This document shows, one piece after another, positions 14,123 through 37,759 of a DNA stretch of 64,000 nt. Under the pieces are notes generated by a model that ran no database searches, was not told the origin of the DNA, and worked only from the letters and a program-made list of their open reading frames with translations. A program made the position numbers and the translations under genes. Source of the DNA: Paenibacillus sp. sptzw28. Lineage in GTDB: Bacteria > Bacillota > Bacilli > Paenibacillales > Paenibacillaceae. The stretch spans positions 1,445,501 through 1,509,500 of the forward strand of contig NZ_CP080545.1 of NCBI RefSeq assembly GCF_019550795.1, given 5' to 3'. Position 1 is the first letter of the stretch, and each line of letters begins with the position of its first letter.

Positions 14123-14185
14123 GTCTATATAATGCTACTCTATGTCCTGAAACTGCAGGTTTAATGTTATAACATCATATATAAT
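14123..14185 (+). promoter_or_regulatory. Conserved two-box element plus -10 (copy A), upstream of LplBC-like permeases
   Basis: Box 1 GTCTATATAATGCTACT and box 2 TGTCCTGAAACTGCAGGTTT span 14123-14162. A TATAAT lies at 14180, exactly 57 nt after the first base. The -35 position falls inside box 2 and is a poor sigma-A hexamer, as expected for an activator-dependent promoter. The stretch 14107-14381 holds no gene apart from this promoter, a leader and a cre-like site. Confidence 0.75.
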
Positions 14186-14297
14186 CCGTATTGAAGGAGA
14201 AATTCAAGAAACTCGGAGTGCGGATAGAAGAATCAACACGGCGAATATGGGGGTTTAGCATGAAGGCCGACTACAGACAATAAATTGGATTTGAAAA

Positions 14298-14311
14298 AGA
14301 AAGCGGTTACA
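14298..14311 (+). promoter_or_regulatory. cre-like site in transporter leader
   Basis: AGAAAGCGGTTACA matches TGWNANCGNTNWCA at 13 of 14 positions. It lies about 110-125 nt downstream of the presumed transcription start, a position where CcpA can act as a roadblock. Confidence 0.5.
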
Positions 14312-14411
14312 CTTTGGTGGCGCTACTTTCATGATACTCTACGATGAGGACACAAAAAATATAGAGGGAGTTGTTGTTGAGATGTCAAATCAACCGGGCA
14401 GGGGGAACGAT

Positions 14412-15368
14412 ATGGGGGCGAAACTGAATGGTCAAGCTTATACGACAGCTGCGATGAAGCAGTTTCAGTTTAAAGAAAAATATAAATTGTTCCTCATGGC
14501 TTTGCCTTTTCTGGTACTCGTCTTTTTGTTCTCTTATTTGCCGCTTTACGGCTGGATTTATGCCTTTTTCGACTACAGGCCTGCCATTCCGCTGTCCAAG
14601 ACCGAGTTTGTAGGGTTTCAGTGGTTTACAACGTTGGTGTCAAATAAGTACCAGATGGAGGAAGTTCTCCGAGTATTGCGTAACACATTCGCGATCAGTT
14701 CGCTTGGCCTTCTGACTTCGGTTCTTCCGGTTATCTTCGCGATTTTCCTGATGGAAATAAAGAGCACACGATTTAAGAAAACTGTGCAGACGCTTACAAC
14801 GCTGCCGAACTTTATCAGTTGGGTGCTGGTGTACTCCTTCGCCTTTATGTTGTTTTCTGTTGACAATGGCTTCCTGAACAATTTGCTCATAAACATGGGC
14901 CTGATCGAACGGCCGCTGAACATTCTGGCATCGGACAACCACACCTGGCTGTCTATGACGTTGTGGGGGGTATGGAAAGGACTCGGCTGGGGAGCGATCT
15001 TGTACATTGCCGCGATTACGGGCATCGATCCGGAAATGTATGAGGCGGCGAGAGTGGACGGAGCAGGCCGGTTCCGGCTGATGTGGCATGTGACGGTTCC
15101 AGGGGTTATGCCGACATTCTTCGTGCTGCTCATACTCGGGATCGCGGGTTTTATCAATAATGGATTTGAGCAATATTTTGTATTCTCGAACGCGATAAAC
15201 ATGAATAATATCGAGGTGCTTGATCTATATGTGTACAACGTCGGTGTAGTGAACAATAACTTCGGGTTCGCGACAGCGGTCAGCATTCTGAAATCGATTG
15301 TCAGCTTGATCTTGCTGTTTGCAGCCAACAGCCTGTCAAAGCTGGTTCGCGGCGAAGGCGTTATCTAA
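14412..15368 (+). CDS. LplB/YteP-like polysaccharide ABC transporter permease
   Basis: 318 aa from the ATG at 14412, chosen for AGGGGG six bases upstream. In-frame ATGs at 14382 and 14331 are possible, with poorer sites. Six spans begin at LFLMALPFLVLVFLFSYLPL, with the PLYGW motif usual for LplB proteins. The EAA loop is YEAARVDGAGRFRLMWHVTV near nt 15036-15095. It is the first gene of a permease-permease-binding protein operon driven by promoter copy A. Together with the next gene it should import oligosaccharides released by the locus enzymes (inference). Confidence 0.87.
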   Translation: MGAKLNGQAYTTAAMKQFQFKEKYKLFLMALPFLVLVFLFSYLPLYGWIYAFFDYRPAIPLSKTEFVGFQWFTTLVSNKYQMEEVLRVLRNTFAISSLGLLTSVLPVIFAIFLMEIKSTRFKKTVQTLTTLPNFISWVLVYSFAFMLFSVDNGFLNNLLINMGLIERPLNILASDNHTWLSMTLWGVWKGLGWGAILYIAAITGIDPEMYEAARVDGAGRFRLMWHVTVPGVMPTFFVLLILGIAGFINNGFEQYFVFSNAINMNNIEVLDLYVYNVGVVNNNFGFATAVSILKSIVSLILLFAANSLSKLVRGEGVI

Positions 15369-15392
15369 GTCGACCTAGGAAGGAGAACCGAT

Positions 15393-16277
15393 ATGAGGAT
15401 TAATAACAGGATTACAATTTTTGACATATTTAACTATACGCTGTTTGCCTTATTTACTTCTGCTTGTTTCTTTCCGTTTTATTATTTGTTCATCAATACA
15501 ATCAGCAGTAACGACTTGAGCAGCAGAGGACTCGTTATGTTCTACCCCAAAGAGATTCATTTCGACAACTATATCCAAGTGTTCAAGATTCCTGGGCTGG
15601 GCCAAGCCACGCTAGTATCCTTTGCACGCACTTTGATCGGCACTGCGCTGACCGTGGCCGCTTCGGGTTTTCTTGGTTACTTGTTTTCGAAACCTACCAT
15701 GTGGGGACGCAAGTTCTGGTACCGTTTCCTCATCGCCACGATGTACTTTAATGCCGGCTTGATTCCGTGGTTCCTGATCATGCTTAAGCTTGGCTTCGTC
15801 AACAATTTCCTGGCCTATATTGTGCCTGGGATCGTCTCGCCATTCTTTATTATCCTCGTCAAAACGTTTGTCGAGTCGACGCCGATTTCCCTGCAGGAAT
15901 CGGCGCAACTCGACGGAGCCGGCAATATGACGATCTTCTGGAAGATCGTCATGCCGTTGATCACGCCGATTCTAGCCACGATCGCCATCTTCTCGGCCAT
16001 CGGACAGTGGAACTCGTTCCAGGACACGTTGTTCCTGGTAACAGATCAGAACCTGTTTACGCTGCAATTTATCCTGTATCGCTATTTCAACGGAGCGACA
16101 TCGCTGGCAACTCTGTTGCAGTCCGGGGCTTCCGATACAAATCTGGCCAATATTCAGACGGCTACTTCGATTCGGACGACGGTTTCGATGGTTGTCGTCA
16201 TTCCGATATTGCTCGTCTATCCGTTCTTCCAACGATTCTTTGTCAAAGGAATCATGATCGGGGCTGTTAAGGGTTAA
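15393..16277 (+). CDS. LplC/YtcP-like carbohydrate ABC transporter permease
   Basis: 294 aa, with AGGAAGGAG upstream of the ATG. Six membrane spans; the EAA loop is LQESAQLDGAGNMTIFWKIV around nt 15891-15950. The C-terminus FFVKGIMIGAVKG is the characteristic ending of LplC/YtcP permeases. It is paired with the preceding LplB-like gene (24 nt gap) and followed after 129 nt by the binding protein. A shared ATPase from elsewhere is expected, as none is encoded here. Confidence 0.88.
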   Translation: MRINNRITIFDIFNYTLFALFTSACFFPFYYLFINTISSNDLSSRGLVMFYPKEIHFDNYIQVFKIPGLGQATLVSFARTLIGTALTVAASGFLGYLFSKPTMWGRKFWYRFLIATMYFNAGLIPWFLIMLKLGFVNNFLAYIVPGIVSPFFIILVKTFVESTPISLQESAQLDGAGNMTIFWKIVMPLITPILATIAIFSAIGQWNSFQDTLFLVTDQNLFTLQFILYRYFNGATSLATLLQSGASDTNLANIQTATSIRTTVSMVVVIPILLVYPFFQRFFVKGIMIGAVKG

Positions 16278-16406
16278 ATGGTGAGTACTAGCAAGGGGGT
16301 GAGGCGGGTCGTTGTACGCATGAAAAATTTGTCAAATGGGAGTCAGCATTCTTAGCAATGAAAGAGAAGGTTTTTGCAGATATATGACAAGGAGGGTAAC
16401 AAACAC

Positions 16407-18149
16407 ATGAAAAGAAACAAATGGACAGCGGCTGCTGTCGCGATGATCGCCATGCTTGTATTCTTATCCGCGTGCAGCGGATCCGCTGGAACCAACTCGG
16501 CAACCAACTCGGGCAATAACACAGGAACGGAAGTAAGCACCGATCCTTCGAAGCAACCGGAGATCACGCTGAACGTATTCTCGAACCTGTCCAACTATAC
16601 TGGCGAGCAACCGGGTTGGTTTGGGAAGTTGATCAAGGATAAATTTAACATCAAATTAAACATTATCTCCGGCGGGCAGCAAAGAGCTGCTACGATGATG
16701 GCCTCCGGTGATTTAGGCGACATCGCGATCGCAATCGATATAGTGGATGCTTCCAAAGCCGGATTACTGCTGGATTGGAACAAGGATGGCCTGCTTGACA
16801 AATACGGCCAGGACATTAAGAAATATGCCGGTCAGGCGCTCGAAGCCAACAGCAAGCAGTATGGCGGCGGCACGGCGATTTACGCTATCGGTCAAAACGT
16901 CGGCAGCGGCAGCGGTCCGAGCGAAGGCGCCAATATGACGTTTGGCCCGTGGCTTCGTTGGGACTTATATCAACAACTGGGAAGCCCGGAAATCAAGACG
17001 CTGGAAGACTACCTTCCCGTTGTCAAAAAAATGCAGGAGCTTAGTCCGAAGAGTGATTCCGGCAAGCCTACGTACGGATTTTCGCTGTGGTCGGACTGGG
17101 ATGGGGTGATGGCGCTGAACCCCAAGGTTATGGCTCAATTCTATGGCTATAATGATGGAGATGGCTTCAATGACGCCGAACTGATGATGACGAAGGCCGA
17201 TGAAGCGAAATGGCAAGGCTTGCTCGACGAAGACAGCTACTACATGAGAGGTTTGAAATTCTTCTTTGAAGCGAATAAGATGGGGCTGCTTGACCCAGAT
17301 TCTTTGACGCAGAAGTTCCCCGACGTGACCAACAAGTATAGTGACGGACAAATTCTATTCGCGCAACTCCCGTGGCTTACCGATGGCTACAACACCGAGA
17401 AGCACGTAAACGCAGGTAAAGGCTTCGCGTTCGTGCCATTCGCCGAAGAGAAAATGTCTTCTGCTGGATTCTCGCCTTATGGCGGCACTTGGTATTGGTC
17501 TATTGGCGCGAAGACAAAATATCCGGAGCGCGTGATGCAATTCATGAACTGGATGTTCTCGCCGGAGGGCGTTCAGGAAACCCATATAGGTCCAAAGGGT
17601 TTGCTGTGGGATATCGTGGATGGCAAGCCGACTCTGACCGAATTCGGATACAAAGCGGTCTCCAACTCCGTCGATATGCCTGCCGAATACGGCGGCGGTC
17701 TGTTCAAGGACGGAGTAAACCAAATGAACAACAGAACGGTTAATCTGTCCATGATCAATCCGGAAACAGGGGAACCGTACGATTACTCGATGTGGACCTC
17801 TTATTTGAACAACAATCCGAATCCGGTCACGAAGAGCTGGCGGGACGCTATGGATGCACTGACGGTGAAAGACTATGTTGTGAAGAACAACAAAGTAGCC
17901 GTGCAGCCTCCATACTTTAGCGATAAAGCTAAAACGCAGGAACCGTCCGACATTAAGCAGAAGAAAGCCGAAGTGGGCAAAGTCATCAAGGAATATTCCT
18001 GGAAGATGATGTTCGCGAAGAACGATAATGAGTTTGCCAGCTTAAAAGAGGCTATGGTATCGAAAGCCAAAGGCCTGGGCTACGACGATGTTATTAAGTT
18101 CCAAGTCGATAATTACGAAAAAACGGTCGGAGCAGCCTTGAAAAAGTAA
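16407..18149 (+). CDS. Extracellular solute-binding lipoprotein (LplA-like)
   Basis: 580 aa from the ATG at 16407, set by AAGGAGGGT nine bases upstream; an open extension to 16374 lacks a site. The signal MKRNKWTAAAVAMIAMLV ends in the lipobox LSAC, followed by a Ser/Asn/Thr-rich linker. The body is the large LplA-type binding fold. Placed third after the permeases, it completes the importer of the polysaccharide locus. The ligand is probably a xyloglucan- or xylan-type oligosaccharide, judged only from neighbouring enzymes. Confidence 0.88.
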   Translation: MKRNKWTAAAVAMIAMLVFLSACSGSAGTNSATNSGNNTGTEVSTDPSKQPEITLNVFSNLSNYTGEQPGWFGKLIKDKFNIKLNIISGGQQRAATMMASGDLGDIAIAIDIVDASKAGLLLDWNKDGLLDKYGQDIKKYAGQALEANSKQYGGGTAIYAIGQNVGSGSGPSEGANMTFGPWLRWDLYQQLGSPEIKTLEDYLPVVKKMQELSPKSDSGKPTYGFSLWSDWDGVMALNPKVMAQFYGYNDGDGFNDAELMMTKADEAKWQGLLDEDSYYMRGLKFFFEANKMGLLDPDSLTQKFPDVTNKYSDGQILFAQLPWLTDGYNTEKHVNAGKGFAFVPFAEEKMSSAGFSPYGGTWYWSIGAKTKYPERVMQFMNWMFSPEGVQETHIGPKGLLWDIVDGKPTLTEFGYKAVSNSVDMPAEYGGGLFKDGVNQMNNRTVNLSMINPETGEPYDYSMWTSYLNNNPNPVTKSWRDAMDALTVKDYVVKNNKVAVQPPYFSDKAKTQEPSDIKQKKAEVGKVIKEYSWKMMFAKNDNEFASLKEAMVSKAKGLGYDDVIKFQVDNYEKTVGAALKK

Positions 18150-18176
18150 TCAACAAGAAATGAACTGACATCTAAT

Positions 18177-18212
18177 TTCCGTGAGCGTAATAAGCTTGCG
18201 GAATTTTTTTTT
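18177..18212 (+). terminator. Intrinsic terminator after binding protein
   Basis: TTCCGTGAGC pairs with GCTTGCGGAA (two G-T pairs), followed by a long T run. Confidence 0.8.
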
Positions 18213-18240
18213 AGCTAAGCCCGGCGCCTGAAATACAAAT

Positions 18241-18303
18241 GGCTAAATCATGCTATTCGATGACCTGAAAATCAAGGTTCAAGTCTATGCCGTGTTTTAT
18301 AAT
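18241..18303 (+). promoter_or_regulatory. Conserved two-box element plus -10 (copy B), upstream of GH43
   Basis: Box 1 GGCTAAATCATGCTATT and box 2 TGACCTGAAAATCAAGGTT precede TATAAT at 18298, again 57 nt from the first base. Box 2 contains a partial palindrome CCTGA-aaa-TCAAGG. Confidence 0.75.
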
Positions 18304-18356
18304 CGAATGGAAGGACTACGGTATTATCAAACATTAGATTGATTAGGAGCTGTAAC

Positions 18357-19889
18357 ATGGAGACGTGTAGCATCGCGACGTATAGCAATCCAGTAATTCC
18401 AGGCTTTTATCCCGACCCGAGCATCTGCCGTGTCGAAGATGATTATTATTTGGTAACAAGCTCGTTTGCTTATTTTCCTGGAGTCCCCATATTTCACAGC
18501 AAGGATCTTGTCAATTGGCGCCAGATCGGACATTGTCTCACTACCGAGCAGCAATTGCCGCTGGCCAACACCTGGTTATCGGGAGGGATTTACGCCCCAA
18601 CGATCCGCTATCACGACGGCTGGTTCTATATGGTCACGACGAATGTGAGCGGGGTCGGCAACTTCTATGTTCGCAGCCAACAACCGGAAGGTCCTTGGTC
18701 TGAGATGATTACTGTCGCGCAGGATGGCATTGATCCATCTCTATTATTCGATGAAGATGGCAGCGTATACTTTCAATCCACTTGTTTCGGCAATGAAGGC
18801 TATGGCATTTATCAATGCGAGATTGATATATCGACCGGGAAATTGCTGACAGAGAGTCGTCTAATCTGGAGGGGAACGGGCGCAGCGCATCCGGAAGCGC
18901 CTCATCTTTACAAGATCAACGGACTTTTTTACTTGTTGCTTGCCGAAGGCGGGACGGAATACGGTCATATGGTGACGATAGCGAGAAGCGACGCTCCATA
19001 TGGACCGTACGAACCATGTCCCCATAATCCGATTCTTTCTCACAGAAGCATGAAGAGCAGCATACAGGCAACAGGGCATGCAGATCTGGTACAGGCGCAT
19101 GACGGCAGCTGGTGGGCGGTTTTCTTGGGTGTCAGACCTGTCTCATATCCCTACCGGCATCATTTGGGCAGAGAGACGTTTCTGGCGCCCGTGTCATGGA
19201 CGGCTGATGGCTGGCCAATCATCGGTAATGGGGGAAGTGTCGAGAGCGTCATGGATGCTCCGCAGTTGACGGAGGTCCGGTGGCAGACTAACTCAACCAG
19301 AGATGATTTTGACGATTCAACCTTAGGCTTCGACTGGGTATTCCTGCGGAATCCGGATCCGTTATGCTGGTCGCTCAGCGAATCTCCCGGTAATCTTGTA
19401 CTGCGCGGAACCGAGGCGTCGCTCGACGATTCCGGCGCTCCCGCCTTTGTAGGTCGTCGTTTGCGCCACTGGTCATGCAACATTTCCACCTTGCTGGATT
19501 TCGAACCGCAGCACGAGGGCGAGGAAGCCGGACTTACCGTATTTATGAGCGAAAGATATCATTACGATCTGGCTGTAATGCGCAAAGAAGGTCGCAAGGT
19601 GATCGTATTCCGGCGAACCGTAGGATCCATGAGGATGGAGCGCACGCTGGAATGCTTAGAGGGTCCTGTCGTTCTTAAGATTGAAGCTCATCCGGAATGG
19701 CTTCATTTCAAGATTCAGCAGAATCAATCCAATGTCCTTGAATTGGGGTCTGGAGAAACGCATCTGCTCTCAACGGAAGTAGCGGGTGGCTTTACAGGAG
19801 TAATCATTGCGATGTACGCGGTCTGCGAAACGGGGCAGGGTTCTCCGGCATGCTTTGATTGGTTCGAATATGAGCCATTGAACGGATGA
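18357..19889 (+). CDS. GH43 beta-xylosidase / alpha-L-arabinofuranosidase (XynB-like)
   Basis: 510 aa without a signal peptide, so cytoplasmic. The start at 18357 follows TTAGGAGC. The five-bladed GH43 domain (residues 1-310) shows the catalytic base D20 in PGFYPDPS and the likely general acid E180 in AHPEAPHLY. A C-terminal beta-sandwich (about 320-505, DUF1349/GH43_C2-like) follows, as in XynB-type enzymes. It probably removes xylose or arabinose from imported oligosaccharides. It is a single gene between promoter copy B and its own terminator. The exact substrate needs biochemical data. Confidence 0.87.
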   Translation: METCSIATYSNPVIPGFYPDPSICRVEDDYYLVTSSFAYFPGVPIFHSKDLVNWRQIGHCLTTEQQLPLANTWLSGGIYAPTIRYHDGWFYMVTTNVSGVGNFYVRSQQPEGPWSEMITVAQDGIDPSLLFDEDGSVYFQSTCFGNEGYGIYQCEIDISTGKLLTESRLIWRGTGAAHPEAPHLYKINGLFYLLLAEGGTEYGHMVTIARSDAPYGPYEPCPHNPILSHRSMKSSIQATGHADLVQAHDGSWWAVFLGVRPVSYPYRHHLGRETFLAPVSWTADGWPIIGNGGSVESVMDAPQLTEVRWQTNSTRDDFDDSTLGFDWVFLRNPDPLCWSLSESPGNLVLRGTEASLDDSGAPAFVGRRLRHWSCNISTLLDFEPQHEGEEAGLTVFMSERYHYDLAVMRKEGRKVIVFRRTVGSMRMERTLECLEGPVVLKIEAHPEWLHFKIQQNQSNVLELGSGETHLLSTEVAGGFTGVIIAMYAVCETGQGSPACFDWFEYEPLNG

Positions 19890-19921
19890 TGCACAGCTCG
19901 AATATTCAAGCTTCATCTGTA

Positions 19922-19965
19922 AGTGGCCCATGAATTTATTCATGGGCCTACTCGGTTTTTGAAGT
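19922..19965 (+). terminator. Intrinsic terminator after GH43
   Basis: The near-perfect inverted repeat AGTGGCCCATGAAT / ATTCATGGGCCTACT (one bulge) is followed by CGGTTTTT. Confidence 0.85.
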
Positions 19966-19971
19966 TATAAT

Positions 19972-20011
19972 GTCTCTAATGTGCTATTACAATGACTAGA
20001 TAATCAAGCGG
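19972..20011 (+). promoter_or_regulatory. Truncated conserved two-box element (copy E), -10 lost
   Basis: GTCTCTAATGTGCTATT and ATGACTAGATAATCAAG match the two boxes (one extra base between them). The sequence then departs into GH95-like coding sequence. At +57 it reads TATTGC within that sequence, not TATAAT. The promoter therefore seems to have been cut by a deletion. Confidence 0.65.
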
Positions 20012-20250
20012 GGCGGTTTCGAGGTCGATATTGCCTGGAAAGACGGATATGTTGCCGAGGCCGAACTGAGAGCGACGCGGAATGCTCTGTGCAGCATGCG
20101 CGTTCGAGCGCCATTCGCGTAACGCTGGCAGACGGCTCTTTGCAGGCTCAAAGCGATGGTGCGTCGGTGTTGAAGTTTCAGGCGTTCGTAGGGGAGACTA
20201 TTCTATTAGGGCTGTGCGATAAAAAACGAAGAATGATCAAACACAGTAGG
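20008..20250 (+). pseudogene. GH95-like 3' remnant, frameshifted
   Basis: The first part reads RGGFEVDIAWKDGYVAEAEL, then RATRNALCSM, up to a stop at about 20121. A second frame then continues as AIRVTLADGSLQAQSDG and VLKFQAFVGETILL. This pattern matches the C-terminal domain of GH95 alpha-L-fucosidases as remembered, broken by one frameshift. About 1.9 kb of an expected gene is missing. The fragment directly abuts promoter element copy E and ends just before the next GH43 gene. It cannot encode an active enzyme. Confidence 0.65.
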
Positions 20251-20261
20251 AGGAAGAAGAG

Positions 20262-21701
20262 ATGACCAAGGATATTAGAAAAGGGGACTTGGGGAACGGC
20301 ACCTATCGGAATCCGGTGTTAGCCGGAGATTATGCCGATCCTTCCGTATTGCGACTAGGCAACGACTATTACATGACACATTCCAGCTTTACATTCGCCC
20401 CGGGGCTCTTGATCTGGCATTCGAGGGATTTGGTCAACTGGCGTCCGGTTGGCAAAGCGCTGGATCGCTATATCGGGGATGTCTGGGCGCCGGATTTCAT
20501 TGTGTATGAGGGTACGTTTTATATCTATGTGCCTGTGGACGGGAAAATCGTGGCGCTAACTGCGCCGGCACCCGAAGGACCATGGGGCGAGCCTGTCCAG
20601 TTAGGCTTGGAAGCGATTGATCCGGGGCACGTTGTCGACCAAGAAGGCAACCGGTATTTGTATACCGGCGGCGGTTATATGACCAGGCTTTCCAAAGACG
20701 GTCTTTCGATTGAAGGGGAAACCGTTCACGTCTATGACGGATGGGAGTTTCCGGATGAATGGGTGGTGGAAGGAAAGTTTCTTGAGTCGCCCAAGTTATT
20801 CTATCGTAACGGTTATTACTATCTGACGTCCGCTCAAGGCGGAACATCCGGTCCTCCGACGAGCCATATGGTTATATCCGCGCGTTCCAAAAACCCGTGG
20901 GGGCCGTTCGAGAACTCCCCATACAATCCGATCATTCGCACCGAAAGCCGTGATGAGCGCTGGTATTCGAAAGGGCATGGCACCTTGGTCGATACGCCGA
21001 ACGGAGAATGGTGGATCCTGTACCATGCTTACGAAAAAAATAACTATCCATTAGGCAGGCAAACGTTACTGGAGCCGATTGAATGGACGGCAGACGGTTG
21101 GTTCCGAGTACCGGAGGACATTTCCACAGATCAACCGATTGCCAAGCCGGATGGTGCGGCTGTCAAGCATGGCTTGCCGCATTCCGATTCCTTCACATCG
21201 GATCGGCTAGGGCTGCAATGGAGTTTCTTTAGGCAGCATGACAAGGAACGATATGCGTTTACGGGAGATGCAATTGTGCTCCATGCTTCAGAGGGTGTGT
21301 CGCCGCTCGTCTTTATGCCGGAGGATCACAATTACGAGGTTACCGTGGAGGTAGTCATTGAAGCGGGCAGCCAGGGAAGACTGCTGCTCTTCTATAATCA
21401 AATGTTTTATAGCGGCATGGGGATTTCTGAAGAAGGGATCTATGGCATACTTCGCGGATGGCCTGCGCCGTGCATTCCATTCAATGGAAAAAGTGTTCAT
21501 ATGCGATTGCGCAATTTAGAGCATGAGGTCATCTATTTCTATAGTCATGACGGCAGCACATGGCAGAAGCTTCCGCATTCGTTCGAAGCATCTGGTTTCC
21601 ATCACAATGCGCTGGGAGGCTTCCTGGCCTTGCGAATCGGATTGGACACTTGCGGGGATGGGAAGGTTTTGTTCAAAAACTTTCAATACCGGAGTCTTTA
21701 A
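20262..21701 (+). CDS. GH43 glycosidase with C-terminal beta-sandwich
   Basis: 479 aa, no signal peptide, AGTAGGAGG upstream. The GH43 propeller (about residues 12-290) carries the catalytic D26 in GDYADPSVLR and a candidate general acid E175 in FLESPKLFY. A C-terminal beta-sandwich (about 310-478) resembles the accessory domain of XynB-like enzymes. It belongs to a different GH43 subgroup from the gene at 18357. It heads a three-gene group with two esterase-type genes. Its original promoter (copy E) is apparently broken, so current expression is uncertain. Confidence 0.82.
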   Translation: MTKDIRKGDLGNGTYRNPVLAGDYADPSVLRLGNDYYMTHSSFTFAPGLLIWHSRDLVNWRPVGKALDRYIGDVWAPDFIVYEGTFYIYVPVDGKIVALTAPAPEGPWGEPVQLGLEAIDPGHVVDQEGNRYLYTGGGYMTRLSKDGLSIEGETVHVYDGWEFPDEWVVEGKFLESPKLFYRNGYYYLTSAQGGTSGPPTSHMVISARSKNPWGPFENSPYNPIIRTESRDERWYSKGHGTLVDTPNGEWWILYHAYEKNNYPLGRQTLLEPIEWTADGWFRVPEDISTDQPIAKPDGAAVKHGLPHSDSFTSDRLGLQWSFFRQHDKERYAFTGDAIVLHASEGVSPLVFMPEDHNYEVTVEVVIEAGSQGRLLLFYNQMFYSGMGISEEGIYGILRGWPAPCIPFNGKSVHMRLRNLEHEVIYFYSHDGSTWQKLPHSFEASGFHHNALGGFLALRIGLDTCGDGKVLFKNFQYRSL

Positions 21702-21726
21702 GAGGCTCCAACGTTCAGGGGGCAAT

Positions 21727-22521
21727 ATGAATACGATTGAATTATGGTCTGGAGCATCCAAAGAAAGCATTGGCGATGAGAACCAGGGATGTCCAAGTTT
21801 GAGTGCATACCCTGTGCATGGAAAAGACCAAAGCCCTGCAGTCATCGTATGTCCGGGCGGGAGATATTTCAGACGAGCCGCGCACGAAGGCGAGCCGGTT
21901 GCCAAGTGGTTAAACGGGCTCGGCATATCCGCTTTCGTCCTGAATTATCGTGTATCGCCGTATCAACATCCGATTCCGCTTCAGGATGCGCAGCGGGCTG
22001 TACGAACCGTAAGACATTATGCAAAGGATTGGAACATCGATCCTGAGCGAGTCGGCATTTTGGGCTTTTCCGCAGGCGGTCACTTGGCATCCGCAACGGG
22101 CACTTTGTATGACACAGGAGATAACCAGTCATCCGATCCGATAGAAAGACAGAGCAGCCGTCCGAATTTGCTAATCTTGTGTTATCCGGTCATCACATTC
22201 GGAGCGTATGGTCATCGACCGTCCATGCACCATCTGCTTGGCGATTCTCCGGATGAATCGCTTGTTGCTTTATTGTCCACGGAAAAGAAAGTGACAGAAG
22301 ACACCCCGCCAACGTTTCTCTGGCATGCGGCGGATGATGAGAGGGTTCCGGTTGAAAATAGTTTGCTTTTTGCCGGAGCTCTTAGCCGCCATCAGGTGCC
22401 TTTTGATTTGCATGTATTTGAAAGCGGCGGACATGGACAAGGTTTAGCCGAAGGTCATCCTGAAGTGAAGGCTTGGCCGGAACTCTGTGAGGCATGGCTA
22501 AGAAAACGAAATTTTGTATAA
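21727..22521 (+). CDS. Alpha/beta-hydrolase, probable acetyl esterase
   Basis: 264 aa from the ATG at 21727, chosen for AGGGGG just upstream; the frame is open further upstream but would overlap the GH43 gene. The fold shows the oxyanion motif PGGRYFRRA (about residue 45), the nucleophile S115 in GFSAGGH, an acid in HAADDERVP and the catalytic H in SGGHGQGL. No signal peptide is present. The BD-FAE/axe-like esterase group and the neighbourhood suggest removal of acetyl groups from imported oligosaccharides. Confidence 0.82.
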   Translation: MNTIELWSGASKESIGDENQGCPSLSAYPVHGKDQSPAVIVCPGGRYFRRAAHEGEPVAKWLNGLGISAFVLNYRVSPYQHPIPLQDAQRAVRTVRHYAKDWNIDPERVGILGFSAGGHLASATGTLYDTGDNQSSDPIERQSSRPNLLILCYPVITFGAYGHRPSMHHLLGDSPDESLVALLSTEKKVTEDTPPTFLWHAADDERVPVENSLLFAGALSRHQVPFDLHVFESGGHGQGLAEGHPEVKAWPELCEAWLRKRNFV

Positions 22522-22578
22522 CGATACGCTTCACTGAATGGCATAAAGCTGCAAACAATAGACAGGGGGAAAGTATCC

Positions 22579-23715
22579 ATGTGGTGGAGTTCTTATGCTT
22601 CGGCGACGGTTCAATCTACGGCCAAAAATTTTATGATGAAAAGCGAATCACCTTTTACCCATACGTACAGAGCTTACATCAAGACAACGGAATCCGGGGA
22701 ATTAAAGCTGAGATTCTGGTGCAGCAACCTGGTAGATTCTACATGGGCAGACGGCTCTGAATCGAGCGCCAATCTGATTGGAGGCTCGTGGAAAATCGAG
22801 TCCGCTTACATTGCTAATGGCGGGAGGCTGCCTGATGGAAGCGTTGTAGAGGGTACGCAAATTCCGGTAACGTTCGATTCGTCGATCGCTAGGTTGGTTA
22901 TGCCGGGAGAAAAGTTTTGGAGCGATGCCGCCCGGATCATGATCCCGGAGGAGCATTATTTGGTATTTTCGTGGACGATTACGACATTGGCTGCTGGCGT
23001 AAGCTTTCCCTACAATACGGAATGCCCATTGGTGTCCGCCTACGATGCGCCCGGGAATGCAGCGGGCCAAAGCACAGCCGACGGTTTCCAAAAATCCGCA
23101 AATTGTCTGTTTCTGCCGGATTTCATCGGCTGCGAGCGTGAGGGAGCAAAGCGTATTGCGTTCTTGGGCGATTCCATCACCCAGGGTGTGCGAACGCGCC
23201 CCGACGCTTATGAATACTGGGTTGCCCGCATTGCGGAGGGGCTTGGCCCGGAATACAGTGTATGGAATCTCGGTTCGGGGTGGGCGCGAGCTTACGATGC
23301 CGCAAGCGACAAGGCTTGGCTAAGCAAAGCCAAGCAAAGCGATGAGGTTGTCATAGCATTGGGGGTCAACGATATAAGTACGACCAGACGAAGCGCCCTT
23401 CAAGTGCTGGAGGATCTGCAAACAATTGTGTCCATCCTTAAAGGCAGCCGTATCGATATGTCAGTCATCCTTTGCACCGTCCCCCCTTACAATCTGACCG
23501 ACGCGCAGGAGCTTGTCTGGAGGGATGTGAATCAGGCAATACGAAGCCATGCTATTGCCGGAGTCGATCGAATATTCGATATTGCGGAAGTACTCTCGCA
23601 AGCGACTCCTCGCGATAACCTGATAATACCTGAATATATGTCGAACGAGTTCGATGCGCATCCGAATGGTAAAGCAGGGTCTGCTATTGCCTCAGCTTTC
23701 TCGGCATGGTATTGA
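22579..23715 (+). CDS. SGNH/GDSL hydrolase, probable carbohydrate esterase
   Basis: 378 aa, AGGGGG upstream. An N-terminal beta-rich domain (about residues 1-185) precedes an SGNH domain. The nucleophile is S199 in FLGDSITQG, the block III Asn is in LGVNDIS, and the catalytic pair D359/H361 is in FDAHPNG. No signal peptide is seen, so it is probably intracellular. With the preceding esterase and GH43 it would complete deacetylation of imported oligosaccharides. A terminator follows. Confidence 0.82.
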   Translation: MWWSSYASATVQSTAKNFMMKSESPFTHTYRAYIKTTESGELKLRFWCSNLVDSTWADGSESSANLIGGSWKIESAYIANGGRLPDGSVVEGTQIPVTFDSSIARLVMPGEKFWSDAARIMIPEEHYLVFSWTITTLAAGVSFPYNTECPLVSAYDAPGNAAGQSTADGFQKSANCLFLPDFIGCEREGAKRIAFLGDSITQGVRTRPDAYEYWVARIAEGLGPEYSVWNLGSGWARAYDAASDKAWLSKAKQSDEVVIALGVNDISTTRRSALQVLEDLQTIVSILKGSRIDMSVILCTVPPYNLTDAQELVWRDVNQAIRSHAIAGVDRIFDIAEVLSQATPRDNLIIPEYMSNEFDAHPNGKAGSAIASAFSAWY

Positions 23716-23748
23716 ATGAGAGCTGCCTATTGAGTCTGTATTAAACAC

Positions 23749-23786
23749 GCGGTAAGGAGACATCTTCTCCTAACCGCTTTTTTTTA
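23749..23786 (+). terminator. Intrinsic terminator after SGNH gene
   Basis: GCGGTAAGGAGA pairs with TCTCCTAACCGC (one A-A mismatch), followed by about nine T. Confidence 0.85.
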
Positions 23787-23810
23787 CCAAAAAAAGCTAT
23801 GGTCTTATAT

Positions 23811-23873
23811 GTCTCTATCGTGCTATTTTATGTCCTGAATATCAAGGTTTATGATCAAGCTGTGTCATATAAT
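23811..23873 (+). promoter_or_regulatory. Conserved two-box element plus -10 (copy C), upstream of GH9
   Basis: Box 1 GTCTCTATCGTGCTATT and box 2 TGTCCTGAATATCAAGGTTT precede TATAAT at 23868, 57 nt from the first base. Confidence 0.75.
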
Positions 23874-23881
23874 CATTTCCA

Positions 23882-23895
23882 AGTATACGCTTTCA
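23882..23895 (+). promoter_or_regulatory. Weak cre-like site near the GH9 transcription start
   Basis: AGTATACGCTTTCA matches the cre consensus at 12 of 14 positions and lies 9 nt after the -10 box. Confidence 0.35.
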
Positions 23896-23927
23896 TAGAA
23901 GAAAACGATAAAAAGGGGACTTGCTAG

Positions 23928-26828
23928 ATGAAAACAAGGAAAAAGTCGCGTGGATTCACCAAATCAATCATTTCCTTATTGGTGTTCGTTTCGCTTCTGC
24001 TGACCTGCGCGTTTCCCGCTGCAGCTGATGAGAACGATCCGTTTCTGCCTCCCGGAGGCGCGGACTGGAACAAGCTGAAGGAACTCGCGATCAATGATTT
24101 TGCATGGAATTACGGCAGCCAGTCAACGAATGAAACGTATCTGGGCCAGGCAGCGAGGAAAATCGCTGTCGACAGCTTTTGGGGAGCCAATTATATCCTG
24201 AACGGTTGGCAGACGTTGGATATAAGCCCGTACGAAAATGGTACATTAGAGTTCGATGCGGTTGGAGCGGTTGGCGGCGAAACCTTCTCCGTGGGATTTG
24301 TAGATGTCGTCACGGAACGGTTGGTGGACGGAGAGTTTTTCACGGATAACGATAAGCATCCGTATCAAACCTCTGTGACTGCATCGATTCCGTTAGGAGA
24401 GGAGCTTACAACAGAATGGAAACATTATTCTGTTCCGCTGAAGGATATCTTTGACTCCAACAGCATTTTCAGTAGTTCCAGTGTGCAGATGCTGAACTTC
24501 ACCGGGGATAACAATCCGAAAACGTTCTGGATCAGCAATATTGTCATCAAATCGCCGGATGAGGCGGCAAGCTATGCTCCGATCAAGGTGAACCAGGTCG
24601 GTTATATTGTTAATAGCGAGAAATACGCTCTGGTGAGCGGCTATTACGACGAGCTGACTGCGGTGCCCGGCACACCTTTTCAAGTGAAAAAGGCATCGGA
24701 TATGAGCGTTGCTTACTCCGGCGCGTTGTCCTTGGTCGCAGCCTATGATGCTTCCTCCGGGGAGAAGGTGCTGAAGGCGGACTTCACCGGCCTGAACGAA
24801 CCGGGCGAATATGTGCTGACTGTGGATGGGGTCGCTGAACCTTCCGTTGCCTTCCAGATCGGCGATGGCAGCATTTACAGCACCCTTTTGAAAGATGTGC
24901 AGAAGTTCTTCTACTTCCAGCGCGCCAATGAGGATCTGTTAGCGGAACACGCAGGGATCTTCGCCAGGACCGGCGATCGCAAGGAAGACCAGAACCTTCC
25001 GTTCCAATCCAATCCGACGATCACGAAGGATGTTTCCGGCGGATGGTGGGATGCCGGCGACTTGGGCAAATATGTCACAGTGGGAGCGACAGCCATCTCT
25101 GATCTCCTCTGGGCATACGAGAGCTTTCCGAGCCAATTCCAGGATCATTCGATGAATATCCCGGAAAGCGGAAACGGCATCCCGGATCTGCTGGACGAGA
25201 TCAAGGTTGAAACGGATTTTATTCTCAAAATGCAGGATGAGGCCACAGGAGGCTTCTATGCTTTCGTCAATCGGGAGCATTCACCTGATCGCTATATCAT
25301 GGATGGAACGGCAAGCAATAGACTCATACCGACGTTCCACACCGGCGCTGCAGTTGGCGCTCTGGCTCATGCGTATATCGTCATGAAGGATGTTCCTGGG
25401 TTGACGGATTATGCCGAGACGTTGAAGGCTGCCGCTCTCCGCGGATGGAACTATCTGGAGCAGCATCCGGAATTCATCCCGCAGCCGGATGGTCCATACT
25501 ACTCTTCCAGCGATGTGAACGACCGCTTCTATGCCGCAGCGACGCTGTACCGGGCAACCGGAGAGCAAGTGTATAACGATTACGTCGTCGCTCATTACTT
25601 GAATTTCGCTTCTATTTTCGAGGATGAAACGTTCTCGCACAATATCGGCTCCTTGCAAAGGATGGGATTCTACCATTACATGATGGGGGATCAGCCGAAC
25701 GCCGCAGTGAAGACATGGTTTACCGATAAATTTGTACAATGGCGTGACATTCTCATCAATGCCAATAGGAATAAATCGGTGTGGGGAAATGCCACCCTGG
25801 ATGATTTTTATTGGGGAGCGAACTCCAATAATGCCGGCGTTCCGGTTGGCCTCGCGATCGGCAGCCGCATTCTCGGCCTGTTTAATGAAGAAGACCTTAA
25901 GGTAGCCGCCAGCAATCTGAACTATCTGCTTGGGATTAACCCGCTTCAGATGAGCTATATTACCGGGCACGGAGAGCGCCGTGTGACAAGAACCATCCAT
26001 GAAGTTTACAATGGCGACTTTCTCTTGGAGATGCCCAGCGGTTACATGCCTGGCGGTCCGAACAACAACGGACGCTATACCTTCAGCGGCAAGGCTTACA
26101 ACAATTCCTCTATCGACTGGGAAACCAATGAGCAAGCCTTGAATTACAACTCGCCCCTGACCTTCTTGGTTGCGATGTTGTCCGAATCGAATTCTGCTCC
26201 AGCCGTCTCGATCACCTCGTATGAGGAAGGCCAGGCAATCCATTTAAATAATCCGCGGATTGACTGGACGTTCCTTGACGCCGACGATGCGGATGTACAA
26301 GCCGCCTATCAGGTTCAAGCCTCCAGCAGCGATTGGGAGACGGTTGACGTGGACAGCGGTGAACTGGCTGGCGCATCCGGTTCATACACATTGGATGGAT
26401 TGGAGGACGGAGATTGGTCGATCAGGGTTCGATTGAAGGACAATCGGGGCGACTGGTCGGAGTGGGCGTACAGAAGCTTGATCATTGATACGGTTGCTCC
26501 AACCCTGAATGTTGTCCTGGATAAGGAAACATTGTGGCCGGCCAACAATCGTCTGGTTAAGGTGACGGCAACCGTAGAAACTGCGGATGAGTCTCAAGTG
26601 GAATTGCTGTCTATTACGCCGAGCGTAGCCGTCGACAGCTATGAATCTATGGTACAAGAGGCAGATTTCGGCACATCCGATACGGAATTCATGCTTCTGG
26701 CCAAAAAAGCAAAGGGTAAAGAGCCTCTAGTTTATACCATTACTTATAGAGCGATAGATCAAGCAGGGAATGTTACGGAAGCATCTGTCACCGTCACGGT
26801 TCCCCATGATCAGTCAGGAAATAAATAA
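23928..26828 (+). CDS. Secreted multidomain GH9 endoglucanase
   Basis: 966 aa. A signal peptide (about 1-33, ending FPAAA) precedes a beta-sandwich carbohydrate-binding-like domain (about 40-215), a CelD_N immunoglobulin-like domain (about 220-315, IKVNQVGYIVNSEKYALV) and the GH9 (alpha/alpha)6 domain (about 325-755). Catalytic residues visible are D375/D378 in GGWWDAGDLGKY and the acid E735 in DWETNEQALNYNSP. Two Ig/Fn3-like domains follow (about 760-955). The enzyme should cut the beta-1,4-glucan backbone of cellulose, mixed glucan or xyloglucan outside the cell. An AAGGGGA site and promoter copy C lie upstream. Confidence 0.9.
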   Translation: MKTRKKSRGFTKSIISLLVFVSLLLTCAFPAAADENDPFLPPGGADWNKLKELAINDFAWNYGSQSTNETYLGQAARKIAVDSFWGANYILNGWQTLDISPYENGTLEFDAVGAVGGETFSVGFVDVVTERLVDGEFFTDNDKHPYQTSVTASIPLGEELTTEWKHYSVPLKDIFDSNSIFSSSSVQMLNFTGDNNPKTFWISNIVIKSPDEAASYAPIKVNQVGYIVNSEKYALVSGYYDELTAVPGTPFQVKKASDMSVAYSGALSLVAAYDASSGEKVLKADFTGLNEPGEYVLTVDGVAEPSVAFQIGDGSIYSTLLKDVQKFFYFQRANEDLLAEHAGIFARTGDRKEDQNLPFQSNPTITKDVSGGWWDAGDLGKYVTVGATAISDLLWAYESFPSQFQDHSMNIPESGNGIPDLLDEIKVETDFILKMQDEATGGFYAFVNREHSPDRYIMDGTASNRLIPTFHTGAAVGALAHAYIVMKDVPGLTDYAETLKAAALRGWNYLEQHPEFIPQPDGPYYSSSDVNDRFYAAATLYRATGEQVYNDYVVAHYLNFASIFEDETFSHNIGSLQRMGFYHYMMGDQPNAAVKTWFTDKFVQWRDILINANRNKSVWGNATLDDFYWGANSNNAGVPVGLAIGSRILGLFNEEDLKVAASNLNYLLGINPLQMSYITGHGERRVTRTIHEVYNGDFLLEMPSGYMPGGPNNNGRYTFSGKAYNNSSIDWETNEQALNYNSPLTFLVAMLSESNSAPAVSITSYEEGQAIHLNNPRIDWTFLDADDADVQAAYQVQASSSDWETVDVDSGELAGASGSYTLDGLEDGDWSIRVRLKDNRGDWSEWAYRSLIIDTVAPTLNVVLDKETLWPANNRLVKVTATVETADESQVELLSITPSVAVDSYESMVQEADFGTSDTEFMLLAKKAKGKEPLVYTITYRAIDQAGNVTEASVTVTVPHDQSGNK

Positions 26829-26845
26829 GCTTGTTTAGAAGCTTG

Positions 26846-26876
26846 ATACCTCCGACCGGAATGGTTCGGAGGTATT
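26846..26876 (+). terminator. Hairpin after GH9 gene
   Basis: ATACCTCCGACC pairs with GGTTCGGAGGTAT (one bulged base). The T run after it is weak, so it may act partly as an mRNA-stabilising hairpin. Confidence 0.6.
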
Positions 26877-26970
26877 TCAGGTGAGATGTCCATATCATGA
26901 TCGATGTTGCAGTATCATTTAATGTATGCGCTTTTATGAAGAAAAAGACTTTAAAAAGAAGACTATCAAG

Positions 26971-27252
26971 ATGAAAACAAAGAAAAAGTCGCTTCGCATC
27001 ATCAAACAAATCATTTCCTTATGTATGTCCGTTTCACTGCTGCTGTTGTGTGCGCTTCCCGCCACAGCTGCTGACGACGATCCTTATCTGCCTCCCGGTG
27101 GTGCGGATTGGAACAAGCTAAAGGATCTCGTGATCAATGATTATAAATATGGCCACGGCAATACGGTAACCGATGAAACCTATCTGGGCAAGGCAGCGAA
27201 GAAGATCGAAACCAACGGCTCCTGGGTGGCCAGCAGAGCGCCGTGTGACAAA
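26971..27252 (+). pseudogene. 5' remnant of a duplicated GH9 gene
   Basis: The ATG at 26971 begins a signal peptide and N-terminus nearly parallel to the intact GH9 gene (LPPGGADWNKLKDLVINDY, then TYLGKAAKKIE). At about residue 88 (nt 27232-27240) the sequence jumps to the codons for the GH9 C-terminal part in another frame, and this frame stops shortly after. The ribosome site is also degraded: the intact gene has AAAAAGGGGAC where this copy has AAAAAGAAGAC. About 1.8 kb of catalytic domain is missing. Confidence 0.85.
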
Positions 27253-27443
27253 AACCATTCATGAAATTTACAATGCAGACTTTCTCTTGGAGATGCCCAG
27301 CGGTTACATGCCTGGCGGTCCGAACAACAACGGACGCTATACTTTCAGCGGCAAGGCTTACAACGGTTCCTCTATCGACTGGGAGACCAATGAGCAAGCC
27401 TTGAATTACAACTCGCCCCTGACCTTCTTGGTTGCGATGTTGT
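27236..27443 (+). repeat. Near-identical copy of nt ~25974-26181 (GH9 3' coding region)
   Basis: About 200 nt encoding the GH9 acid motif region are almost identical between the intact gene and the remnant about 1.26 kb downstream. This indicates a recent tandem duplication or gene conversion, and a substrate for recombination. Confidence 0.8.
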
Positions 27444-28372
27444 CCAACTCGAATGAAGCCACCATTCAACTTGAAGCCGAACAAGCTGAGCTGTCAGGCG
27501 GGGTTAAGGTCAATACCAATCATCCAGGATACACGGGCAGCGGCTTTGTGGATGGATACTGGAACTTTGGAGGAACAGCGACTTTTACCGTTAACGTTCC
27601 GGCTGCAGGGAAATACAAAGTAACCGCACGTTACGGCAATGCCGCTTTCAATCCGGCTACAGTGAGTCTTATTGTGAATGGAACGAAAATCAAGCAAACA
27701 AGCTTGCCTATGCTTGCGAACTGGGATACATGGGGCAATCAAACGGAAACGGTGACATTAAATGCCGGCGTCAATACGATCGCTTACAAATATGGCGATA
27801 CGGGAATCATTAACCTTGACCATATTCGGGTTTCTCCTGCGCCAATTGAAGCGGAAACTGCGACCAGGCTAGGATTCGCTTCTGTCTACAATGACTCCTC
27901 AGCGTCAGGCGGTCAGGCGGTTGAGTATCTTCATGTGAGCGGAAATGGCATTCAGTTCAACAATGTTCCTGCTGCAACCAGCCTTACTGTGAGATACGCT
28001 GCCACTAACTCGGGTACGTATAGTATGTACGTGAATGGGGTCAAGACAAAGACCATCAGCTTCACCGGGAATGGCCAATGGAATGGTGCCTACACTAGCG
28101 TAACCGTGCCGGTCAATATCCCTGCAGGCGCGACATTGAAGTTCCAATATGATGCCGGAGATTCGGGCTGGAATGTAGACTATATTATATTGGCGCAGGG
28201 CGATCAATTATTTAGAGCAGAGGAGAACTTCGTAAAGCCGATCGGCAGGACCGTTTTCTATAATGACACGCTTTGGCTGGCGTTGTCCGGCAGCGGGGCG
28301 GAGTTCAAGTTTAGGGGCACAAAGGCGCAAATTACGATAAAAGGCGACCAGGTTGCGTTAGGGCAGACAGAT
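27236..28372 (+). pseudogene. 3' GH9 remnant fused to two CBM35/6-like modules and a CE2 N-terminal domain
   Basis: The open frame starts with the GH9 tail (RRVTKTIHEIYN, YMPGGPNNNGRYTFSGKAY, the acid-bearing DWETNE), then changes after VAMLSNSNEAT. Two carbohydrate-binding-like modules follow: IQLEAEQAELSGGVKVN ... INLDHIRV and IEAETATRLGFASVYND ... GWNVDYIIL. Then comes FRAEENFVKPIGRTVFYND, resembling the jelly-roll domain of CE2 acetyl esterases. No signal peptide or start signal belongs to this frame. The GH9 part lacks the DAGD half of the active site, so no GH9 activity is possible. Confidence 0.7.
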
Positions 28373-28656
28373 TATGATTGTTATAAATCTTGGGACGAAC
28401 GACTATTCGTATACGAAAGATGATCCGGTGAAGCAGGCTGAGTACAGAGATGCCTATGTCGAATTCCTGAAGCAGGTTCGATCGCGTAATGCGAATGCGC
28501 ATTTGATGTGCACCCTGGGCATAATGGGGGATGCTCTTTTCCCGATGGTGGAGCAAGCAGTCGCAGCTTATTCGGATGAAACCGGCGATACCAATATTTC
28601 GGCTATGAAGTTTGACGTTCAATCGGCTGGGATGGTAGGTTCGAATTGGTGCGCCA
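28366..28656 (+). pseudogene. CE2/SGNH esterase catalytic remnant
   Basis: A shifted frame encodes VINLGTNDYSYTKDD (SGNH block III-like GTND), VEFLKQVRSRNANAHLMC and VEQAVAAYSDETGD, typical of the catalytic part of CE2-like esterases. The GDS nucleophile block is absent and the sequence breaks off near SAGMVGSNW before the terminal D-x-H block. It continues from the CE2-like N-domain just upstream, so two deletions or one deletion plus a frameshift removed the core and the end. Promoter copy D starts about 20 nt after the break. Confidence 0.7.
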
Positions 28657-28675
28657 TTGTCTTGTGTGCTCATCT

Positions 28676-28738
28676 GTCTATATTGTGCTATTTGTTGACT
28701 TGAAAATCAAGGAAATTAGTATGAAAGCGCTATATAAT
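28676..28738 (+). promoter_or_regulatory. Conserved two-box element plus -10 (copy D), upstream of GH2, with cre-like site
   Basis: Box 1 GTCTATATTGTGCTATT and box 2 TGACTTGAAAATCAAGG precede TATAAT at 28733, 57 nt from the first base. TGAAAGCGCTATAT at 28722-28735 (12 of 14 cre positions) overlaps the -10, suggesting catabolite repression by promoter blocking. Confidence 0.75.
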
Positions 28739-28794: not shown

Positions 28795-31818
<3,024 letters not shown>

Positions 31819-35001: not shown

Positions 35002-35038
35002 AGGAACTCTCCTTTGGTTTCATGAATTGAGCAGATCC

Positions 35039-37673: not shown

Positions 37674-37759
37674 TTATTCACTGCCAGAATTCACTGTTAT
37701 ACTATAAATAAGGTACTTTATCTTCTATTAAAGATCTATTCAACAGGCAGGTGACAAAC

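What the first reader, a model, noticed from the sequence alone, without database searches (positions are those of the whole stretch)
14123..28738. A fixed-spacing two-box promoter element defines a local regulon
Four upstream regions (first bases 14123, 18241, 23811, 28676) share box 1 GTCTMTATnrTGCTATT and box 2 TGWCCTGAAAATCAAGGTT. In each case TATAAT begins exactly 57 nt after the first base (14180, 18298, 23868, 28733). The invariant spacing across unrelated downstream genes (LplB permease, GH43, GH9, GH2) shows one activator binding over a weak -35. Box 1 carries CTAT repeats one helical turn apart and box 2 a partial palindrome CCTGA-aaa-TCAAGG, in keeping with an AraC-type factor. A fifth copy is broken at 19972.
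Basis: partly seen in the sequence, partly recalled or inferred. Interest (0 to 1): 0.78.

Follow-up and report, generated by a model that had tools for sequence, protein, structure and literature searches.

The report
AraC-type operators of a hemicellulose regulon

Summary
The four sites are where stated, each with TATAAT at +57. Under the two patterns searched, the 6.1-Mb genome holds seven intact copies and the broken one, all on one strand within 42 kb. Three intact copies lie upstream of the window. In 116 distinct sites from 77 loci of named genomes, a -10 starts 36 or 37 nt after box 2 in 104, and -35 matches are poorer than in shuffled sequence.

The regulator is probably neither 10331 nor 37760. 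The element tracks a cupin/AraC protein encoded 5 kb upstream of the window: 98 of 103 element-bearing family genomes have it, against 11 of 103 for 10331 and 18 of 103 for 37760. In 63 of 77 named loci a site lies just upstream of that araC gene. The boxes share GNCNNNANNAT in direct repeat, 21 or 22 bp apart, like XylS, MekR and MtlR operators, with the inner half-site over the -35 position as at araBAD.

Verdict: new member of a known kind, with targets and probable regulator assigned. Binding, inducer and transcription starts are untested.

The parts
14123..14139 (+). outer half-site (box 1) of the operator before the LplB-type permease gene
   Evidence: matrix hit
14144..14160 (+). inner half-site (box 2), over the -35 position
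14180..14185 (+). -10 box TATAAT
14331..18149 (+). probable target operon: two BPD_transp_1 permeases and a SBP_bac_1-like protein (below Pfam's cut-off); LplB/YtcP/LplA type
18241..18257 (+). box 1 before the GH43 gene
18262..18278 (+). box 2
18298..18303 (+). -10 box TATAAT
18357..19889 (+). probable target gene: GH43 with GH43_C2 domain; likely ATG at 18357 behind AGGAG (mechanical ORF starts at TTG 18339)
19972..20010 (+). degenerate copy, 22-bp spacer, no good -10 at the expected place; upstream of the second GH43 gene (20262)
23811..23827 (+). box 1 before the GH9 gene
23832..23848 (+). box 2
23868..23873 (+). -10 box TATAAT
23928..26828 (+). probable target gene: GH9 with CBM30
28676..28692 (+). 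box 1 before the GH2 gene
28697..28713 (+). box 2
28733..28738 (+). -10 box TATAAT
28804..31818 (+). probable target gene: GH2 (LacZ-like)
10331..11908 (+).
37751..40015 (+).

Best explanation
The element is the operator and core promoter of a hemicellulose regulon controlled by a one-component AraC/XylS-family activator: a cupin sugar-sensing domain plus a two-HTH DNA-binding domain, encoded at G000:C1:1439618-1440595 on the minus strand, about 5 kb upstream of the window and inside the run of sites. Each operator has two half-sites in direct repeat (shared core GNCNNNANNAT) 21 or 22 bp apart, one per monomer of a dimer. The inner half-site covers the place of the absent -35 box, and a -10 box starts 36-37 nt after its first base, so the bound activator recruits RNA polymerase in place of a -35 (class II activation as at araBAD). 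A breakdown product of xylosyl- or arabinosyl-bearing hemicellulose, imported by the LplABC-type transporter, probably binds the cupin domain and switches on transporter, GH43, GH3, GH9, GH2 and esterase genes together. Shown by computation: the sites, their geometry, the genes behind them, their confinement in the genome, and co-occurrence and adjacency with this araC gene. Inferred: binding, dimer, activation, inducer.
For: Own genome: six 21-bp-spaced sites and one intact 22-bp-spaced site, plus the broken copy, all within C1:1432009-1474212 and none elsewhere under the two patterns; the araC gene lies inside that run. Family-wide (394 genomes): element at up to 2 mismatches in 103, reversed control 0 in every row; araC match at E<=1e-60 in 125, of which 117 at E<1e-100. 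Cross-table with the 117: both 98, araC only 19, element only 5, neither 272, Fisher p 5e-66. Of the 19 araC-only genomes, 16 do have a weaker or 22-bp-spaced site beside araC, 32-53 bits. None of the 8 genomes with only a weaker araC match (E 5e-61 to 6e-68; one of them, G107, a fragment) has the element. In 26 of 30 fetched orthologue loci, the own one included, and 63 of 77 named loci a site lies in the divergent region just upstream of araC. In the 1.55 Mb of those 77 loci there are 120 sites above 24 bits and none in one shuffle of each locus, maximum 20.2. A -10 of at least 5/6 stands at offset 36/37 in 104 of 116 distinct sites, against 0-6 at eight other offset pairs; the -10 was not part of the matrix. 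-35 worse than shuffled. First gene downstream, by best match to the own locus or singleton: GH43 37, LplA-type binding protein 34, LplB permease 13, another binding protein 7, GH5/GH9 7, GH3 6, singletons 9, no ORF 3, of 116. Direct-repeat similarity best at offset 21.
Against: No binding, footprint or expression data. Five element-bearing genomes lack a strong araC hit: two (G114, G156) keep only a remnant matching 31 C-terminal residues, two (G081, G091) show none in the 6 kb looked at, and one (G364) was not followed. Three araC genomes (G012, G131, G204) show no site above 20 bits in the stretch fetched. In 4 of 30 and 14 of 77 loci there is no site next to araC; 4 of 77 have no site at all, including the most distant relative (48% identity). 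The direct-repeat match is partial (6 of 17 columns), and its permutation p of 0.003 is for one offset, not corrected for the 26 tried. Genomes are related and the named loci overlap with the 394 genomes, so the Fisher p overstates independence. The looser matrix that rescued 16 genomes was not run on the 277 genomes without strong araC. GH assignments do not fix the substrate: the GH43 matches both beta-xylosidases and alpha-L-arabinofuranosidases.
Confidence: 0.85

Rival explanations
1. The YesM/YesN two-component system of the window (8530-11908) binds the element.
For: It lies inside the cluster, has an AraC-type DNA-binding domain, and all 11 of 394 genomes with its orthologue carry the element. 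Two-component AraC-type regulators of hemicellulose genes are known (PMC3572039 passages; PMC8579813 passages).
Against: 92 of 103 element-bearing genomes lack it, and 87 of 106 genomes with araC but without YesN have the element. Relatives G002 and G017 have the site beside araC but no ORF with YesN among its best two matches in the 40 kb around and no YesN match genome-wide at E<=1e-150.
Confidence: 0.06
2. The AraC-type protein at 37751-40015 binds the element.
For: It is an AraC-family protein beside a transporter operon in the same window.
Against: Its orthologue (E<=1e-150) is in 46 of 394 genomes; only 18 of those have the element, and 85 of 103 element genomes lack it (odds ratio 2.0, p 0.048). 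The scans of the window show no element at its own transporter operon.
Confidence: 0.02
3. The cupin/AraC protein binds but works mainly as a repressor, or by looping, not as an activator.
For: The inner half-site covers the -35 position, so a bound protein could also block polymerase. A distant looping site was not looked for.
Against: The promoters lack a -35, so they should be weak without help. AraC-type regulators with sites upstream of the promoter were read as activators in C. bescii, and most characterised ones are (PMC8579813 passage).
Confidence: 0.05
4. The copies are a recently duplicated promoter cassette, alike by descent and not by selection for a binder.
For: The copies at 23811 and C1:1432009 also share their spacer (76%) and downstream 100 nt (79%, null 99th percentile 68%) and the signal-peptide start (sequence).
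Against: All other pairs among the eight own-genome copies have flanks below the null 99th percentile, while 24 of 28 pairs exceed it over the 40-nt box region. The element persists beside araC in many species.
Confidence: 0.02

Closest known systems
AraC at araBAD, and the XylS, MekR and MtlR operators
   Same: AraC/XylS-family protein; two half-sites in direct repeat. From the sites written in PMC4514859 (passages) I count a period of 21 bp for XylS and MekR and 22 bp for the two MtlR blocks. The inner AraC half-site (-35 to -51) overlaps the -35 (PMC11434276, figure legend). These match this element.
   Different: Half-site sequence differs (GNCNNNANNAT against TAGC-N7-TCCATA for AraC); many target promoters in one locus; a distant looping site was not looked for; inducer unknown.
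AraC-type two-component regulators of hemicellulose genes (XydR and XygR of Ruminiclostridium cellulolyticum; those of Caldicellulosiruptor bescii)
   Same: Same job, local control of hemicellulose enzymes and transporters; AraC-type binding domain; in C. bescii tandem repeats with large spacers upstream of promoters (PMC8579813 passage; XydR from PMC3572039 passages).
   Different: Those are phosphorelay regulators with a receiver domain; this protein has a cupin domain and no receiver match. The XygR paper itself was not held; it is known here only through citing passages.
RhaS and RhaR (E. coli rhamnose activators)
   Same: Best-scoring named NCBIfam models, matched from about residue 53-69 to the end.
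   Different: 143.2 bits against a cut-off of 288 for RhaS, so not a member of that equivalog; hemicellulose and not rhamnose genes downstream.
MsmR1 of Paenibacillus polymyxa SC2
   Same: AraC/XylS protein of the same genus linked to carbohydrate metabolism (PMC9722767 passages).
   Different: 275 aa and reported as a global regulator with 96% of ChIP-seq fragments in coding regions; whether it is the orthologue of the protein here was not tested.

Membership tests
AraC/XylS-family regulator (the protein at G000:C1:1439618-1440595) | C-terminal domain with two helix-turn-helix motifs | tested here: met
   HTH_18 1e-25 and HTH_AraC 4e-24 with two stretches; solved AraC, Rob, MarA and YesN domains match
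AraC/XylS-family regulator (the protein at G000:C1:1439618-1440595) | N-terminal ligand-binding/dimerisation domain of the sugar-regulator subgroup | tested here: met
   AraC_binding 1.5e-8 and Cupin_2 4e-8; RhaR N-terminal domain match
AraC/XylS-type dimeric operator | two half-sites in direct repeat about 21 bp apart | tested here: met
   offset 21 gives the best mean similarity of 26 direct offsets, single-offset permutation p 0.003; spacing 21 in 73 and 22 in 43 of 116 sites. The match is partial, 6 of 17 columns
Class II activated promoter | inner half-site overlaps the -35 position; -35 poor; -10 present | tested here: met
Class II activated promoter | activator binding and transcription start shown by experiment | not testable with these tools
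   no wet-lab data
YesN-type two-component regulator (10331) as the binder | orthologue present wherever the element is | tested here: not met
   11 of 103 element genomes
The 37751 protein as the binder | orthologue present wherever the element is | tested here: not met
   18 of 103 element genomes
RhaS equivalog | score above the NCBIfam cut-off | tested here: not met
   143.2 bits, cut-off 288
MsmR1 of P. polymyxa | orthology of the protein | not tested
   no sequence of MsmR1 was compared

The most novel reading that the evidence does not exclude
A single ancestral operator beside the araC gene, the state still seen in the many family genomes with one pattern hit, was copied or re-created many times in one or two lineages until it governs a 42-kb hemicellulose locus of seven or more promoters. 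At least once it moved together with a secretion leader, and the locus later gained a YesMN system found so far only where this regulon exists. It would be a readable case of regulon growth by operator spread with near-fixed geometry.
Probability: 0.35. Interest if true: 0.6.

Novelty: new member of a known kind. Interest (0 to 1): 0.45.

Why it matters
It assigns a probable regulator and a sharp operator code (two half-sites 21/22 bp apart, -10 at 36/37) to a hemicellulose regulon carried by 103 of 394 family genomes searched, and also seen in records titled Cohnella, Halalkalibacter and Clostridium. That lets targets be read from sequence alone, suggests a sugar-inducible expression system for Paenibacillus, and gives a natural series from one to a dozen sites per genome for studying how a regulon grows. 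It also shows that the regulators closest to the sites were the wrong guess.

Tried and rejected
Rejected: chance; the regulators at 10331 and 37760; a palindromic box 2 as the conserved core; a strictly invariant 57-nt spacing; promoter-cassette duplication as the general cause (one pair excepted); compensation between the two spacers, since both 21- and 22-bp sites prefer -10 offset 36.

Led nowhere: literature on this element or regulator. Searches (sequence strings) listed, by titles and starts of abstracts, no paper that describes it in the held library; subscription papers are mostly missing. The pneumococcal RR07 and YesN motifs (PMC11034029 passages) do not resemble it by eye. In the passages found, the hemicellulase-regulation review (PMC10766802) and the JDR-2 paper (PMC4765114) name no such regulator or motif. 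MsmR1 orthology stayed open.

Limits and mixed criteria: the 98/19/5/272 table uses the pattern at up to 2 mismatches; the rescue of 16 of 19 araC-only genomes used a looser gapped matrix (>20 bits) that was not applied to the 277 genomes without strong araC. In the genus scan at 3 mismatches 10 hits lay outside the own genome; 5 (G002, G009 x3, G017) have a -10 at +57 or +58. Of the other 5, three were read: L012 and L016 have no TATAAT-like hexamer at +57, and L018 has none there in the stretch printed (my reading); L014 and L015 were not read. The reversed control of that scan gave 1 hit in 22 genomes. Alignment A1 used a first row cut at its C-terminus by my coordinate slip (9235 for 9115); the other nine rows are whole. 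One search printed only the best two matches of each ORF and only ORFs of 110 aa or more.
Full report
A matrix built from three of them finds the fourth far above everything else in the window. The element is 37-38 nt of two boxes; what lies between box 2 and the -10 is little conserved. Among the eight own-genome copies, only the pair 23811 and C1:1432009 has flanks above the null 99th percentile, while 24 of 28 pairs exceed it over the 40-nt box region.

The element is confined to one locus. The window is C1:1445501-1509500 of a single 6.10-Mb contig. With up to 3 mismatches the whole genome holds six copies, all forward, none in the reversed control. Two are upstream of the window, and their -10 boxes fall at +57 as predicted from the window sites. 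The seven intact copies precede a CE2-type esterase with CBM35, a GH3 with CBM6, a sugar-binding protein, the LplB-type transporter operon, a GH43, a GH9 with CBM30 and a GH2. The broken copy at 19972 precedes a second GH43; it has the 22-bp spacer and lost the end of box 2 and the -10 (my reading of the sequence).

The regulator was found by following the element into relatives. In two same-genus genomes with one pattern hit each (G002, G017) the site lies between a permease or binding-protein gene and a divergent gene that is 68-71% identical to a cupin/AraC protein of the own genome, encoded 5 kb upstream of the window; no ORF in the 40 kb around has YesN among its two best matches. Across 394 family genomes that protein has a match at E<1e-100 in 117, the element occurs in 103, and 98 have both. 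The 10331 response regulator occurs in 11 and the 37751 protein in 46, of which 18 have the element. Sixteen of the nineteen apparent exceptions with araC but no pattern hit have a weaker or 22-bp-spaced site beside araC; three have none in the stretch fetched. Exceptions in the other direction are five genomes, two of them with an araC remnant.

Named genomes agree. Of 77 araC loci, 73 hold at least one site and 63 hold one within 400 bp upstream of araC, pointing away from it; 14 do not. Carriers by record title include, beyond Paenibacillus, Cohnella, Gorillibacterium, Halalkalibacter hemicellulosilyticus and a Clostridium (52% identity); a Ruminococcus bin at 48% has none. One carrier is titled Neobacillus mesonae, but its contig length and araC position are those of G147, which the genome set places in the window's own family, so the title may be wrong and I do not count it as an outside carrier. 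The set is not independent of the 394: L156 has the contig length and araC position of G009, which is thus Paenibacillus methanolicus BL24.

Geometry. A -10 of at least 5/6 starts 36 or 37 nt after the first base of box 2 in 104 of 116, against 0-6 at eight other offset pairs; the -10 was not part of the matrix. TTGACA at the usual distance is matched less well in those 104 than in shuffled sequence (1.57 against 2.58 of 6). The half-sites share G, C, A, A, T and T at columns 0, 2, 6, 9, 10 and 16 of 17 when laid 21 bp apart, the best of 26 direct offsets by mean column similarity; the permutation p of 0.003 is for that one offset. This is the layout of XylS and MekR operators (21-bp period counted from their written sites), MtlR (22) and araBAD, where the inner half-site overlaps the -35 (passages in PMC4514859 and PMC11434276). 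If transcription starts about 6-7 nt after the -10, box 2 lies at about -48 to -32; that start is assumed.

Function. Of 116 sites the first gene downstream is a GH43 in 37, an LplA-type binding protein in 34, an LplB-type permease in 13, another binding protein in 7, a GH5 or GH9 in 7 and a GH3 in 6; 9 are singletons and 3 have no ORF. The own GH43 is closest to a solved beta-xylosidase, then to arabinofuranosidases BoGH43A/B; that these come from a xyloglucan locus is recalled. So the regulon serves uptake and cleavage of xylosyl- or arabinosyl-bearing hemicellulose; xylan and xyloglucan cannot be told apart here. The inducer is probably a product of these enzymes (inference).

What is new. 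The protein family, the operator layout and the kind of regulon are known. The nine literature searches named under Tried and rejected listed no held paper that describes this motif or regulator. The finding is therefore a new member of a known kind; its interest is in the sharpness of the code, the regulator assignment against the nearer candidates, and the range from single-hit genomes to genomes with up to a dozen sites.

Noticed in passing
23811-23990 and L009:1509-1690: The GH9 promoter, 5' leader and signal-peptide start (MKTRKKS) are a near copy of those of the CE2-type esterase upstream of the window (site 95%, 100 nt after the -10 79%): a promoter and secretion leader duplicated together.
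   Followed up: partly
10331-11908: The YesN orthologue (E<=1e-150) occurs in only 11 of 394 family genomes and all 11 carry the element, so the two-component system may have been recruited to an existing regulon.
   Followed up: partly
L185, L186 (unnamed relatives G114, G156): The operator and -10 are intact but only a match to 31 C-terminal residues of the araC gene was found beside it.
   Followed up: partly
33277-36724: Two adjacent GH5 enzymes with CBM_X2 and CBM46 on the minus strand lie in the same locus without a copy of the element in the window scans, although 5 of the 116 sites in named relatives precede a GH5 relative of 33277.
   Followed up: no
3953-6508: A DUF5696 protein sits inside the transporter gene run that follows the C1:1440813 site; its role is unknown.
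   Followed up: no
L143: A record titled Neobacillus mesonae MER 107 has the contig length and araC position of G147, a genome placed in the window's own family; the title may be a misnaming.
   Followed up: no
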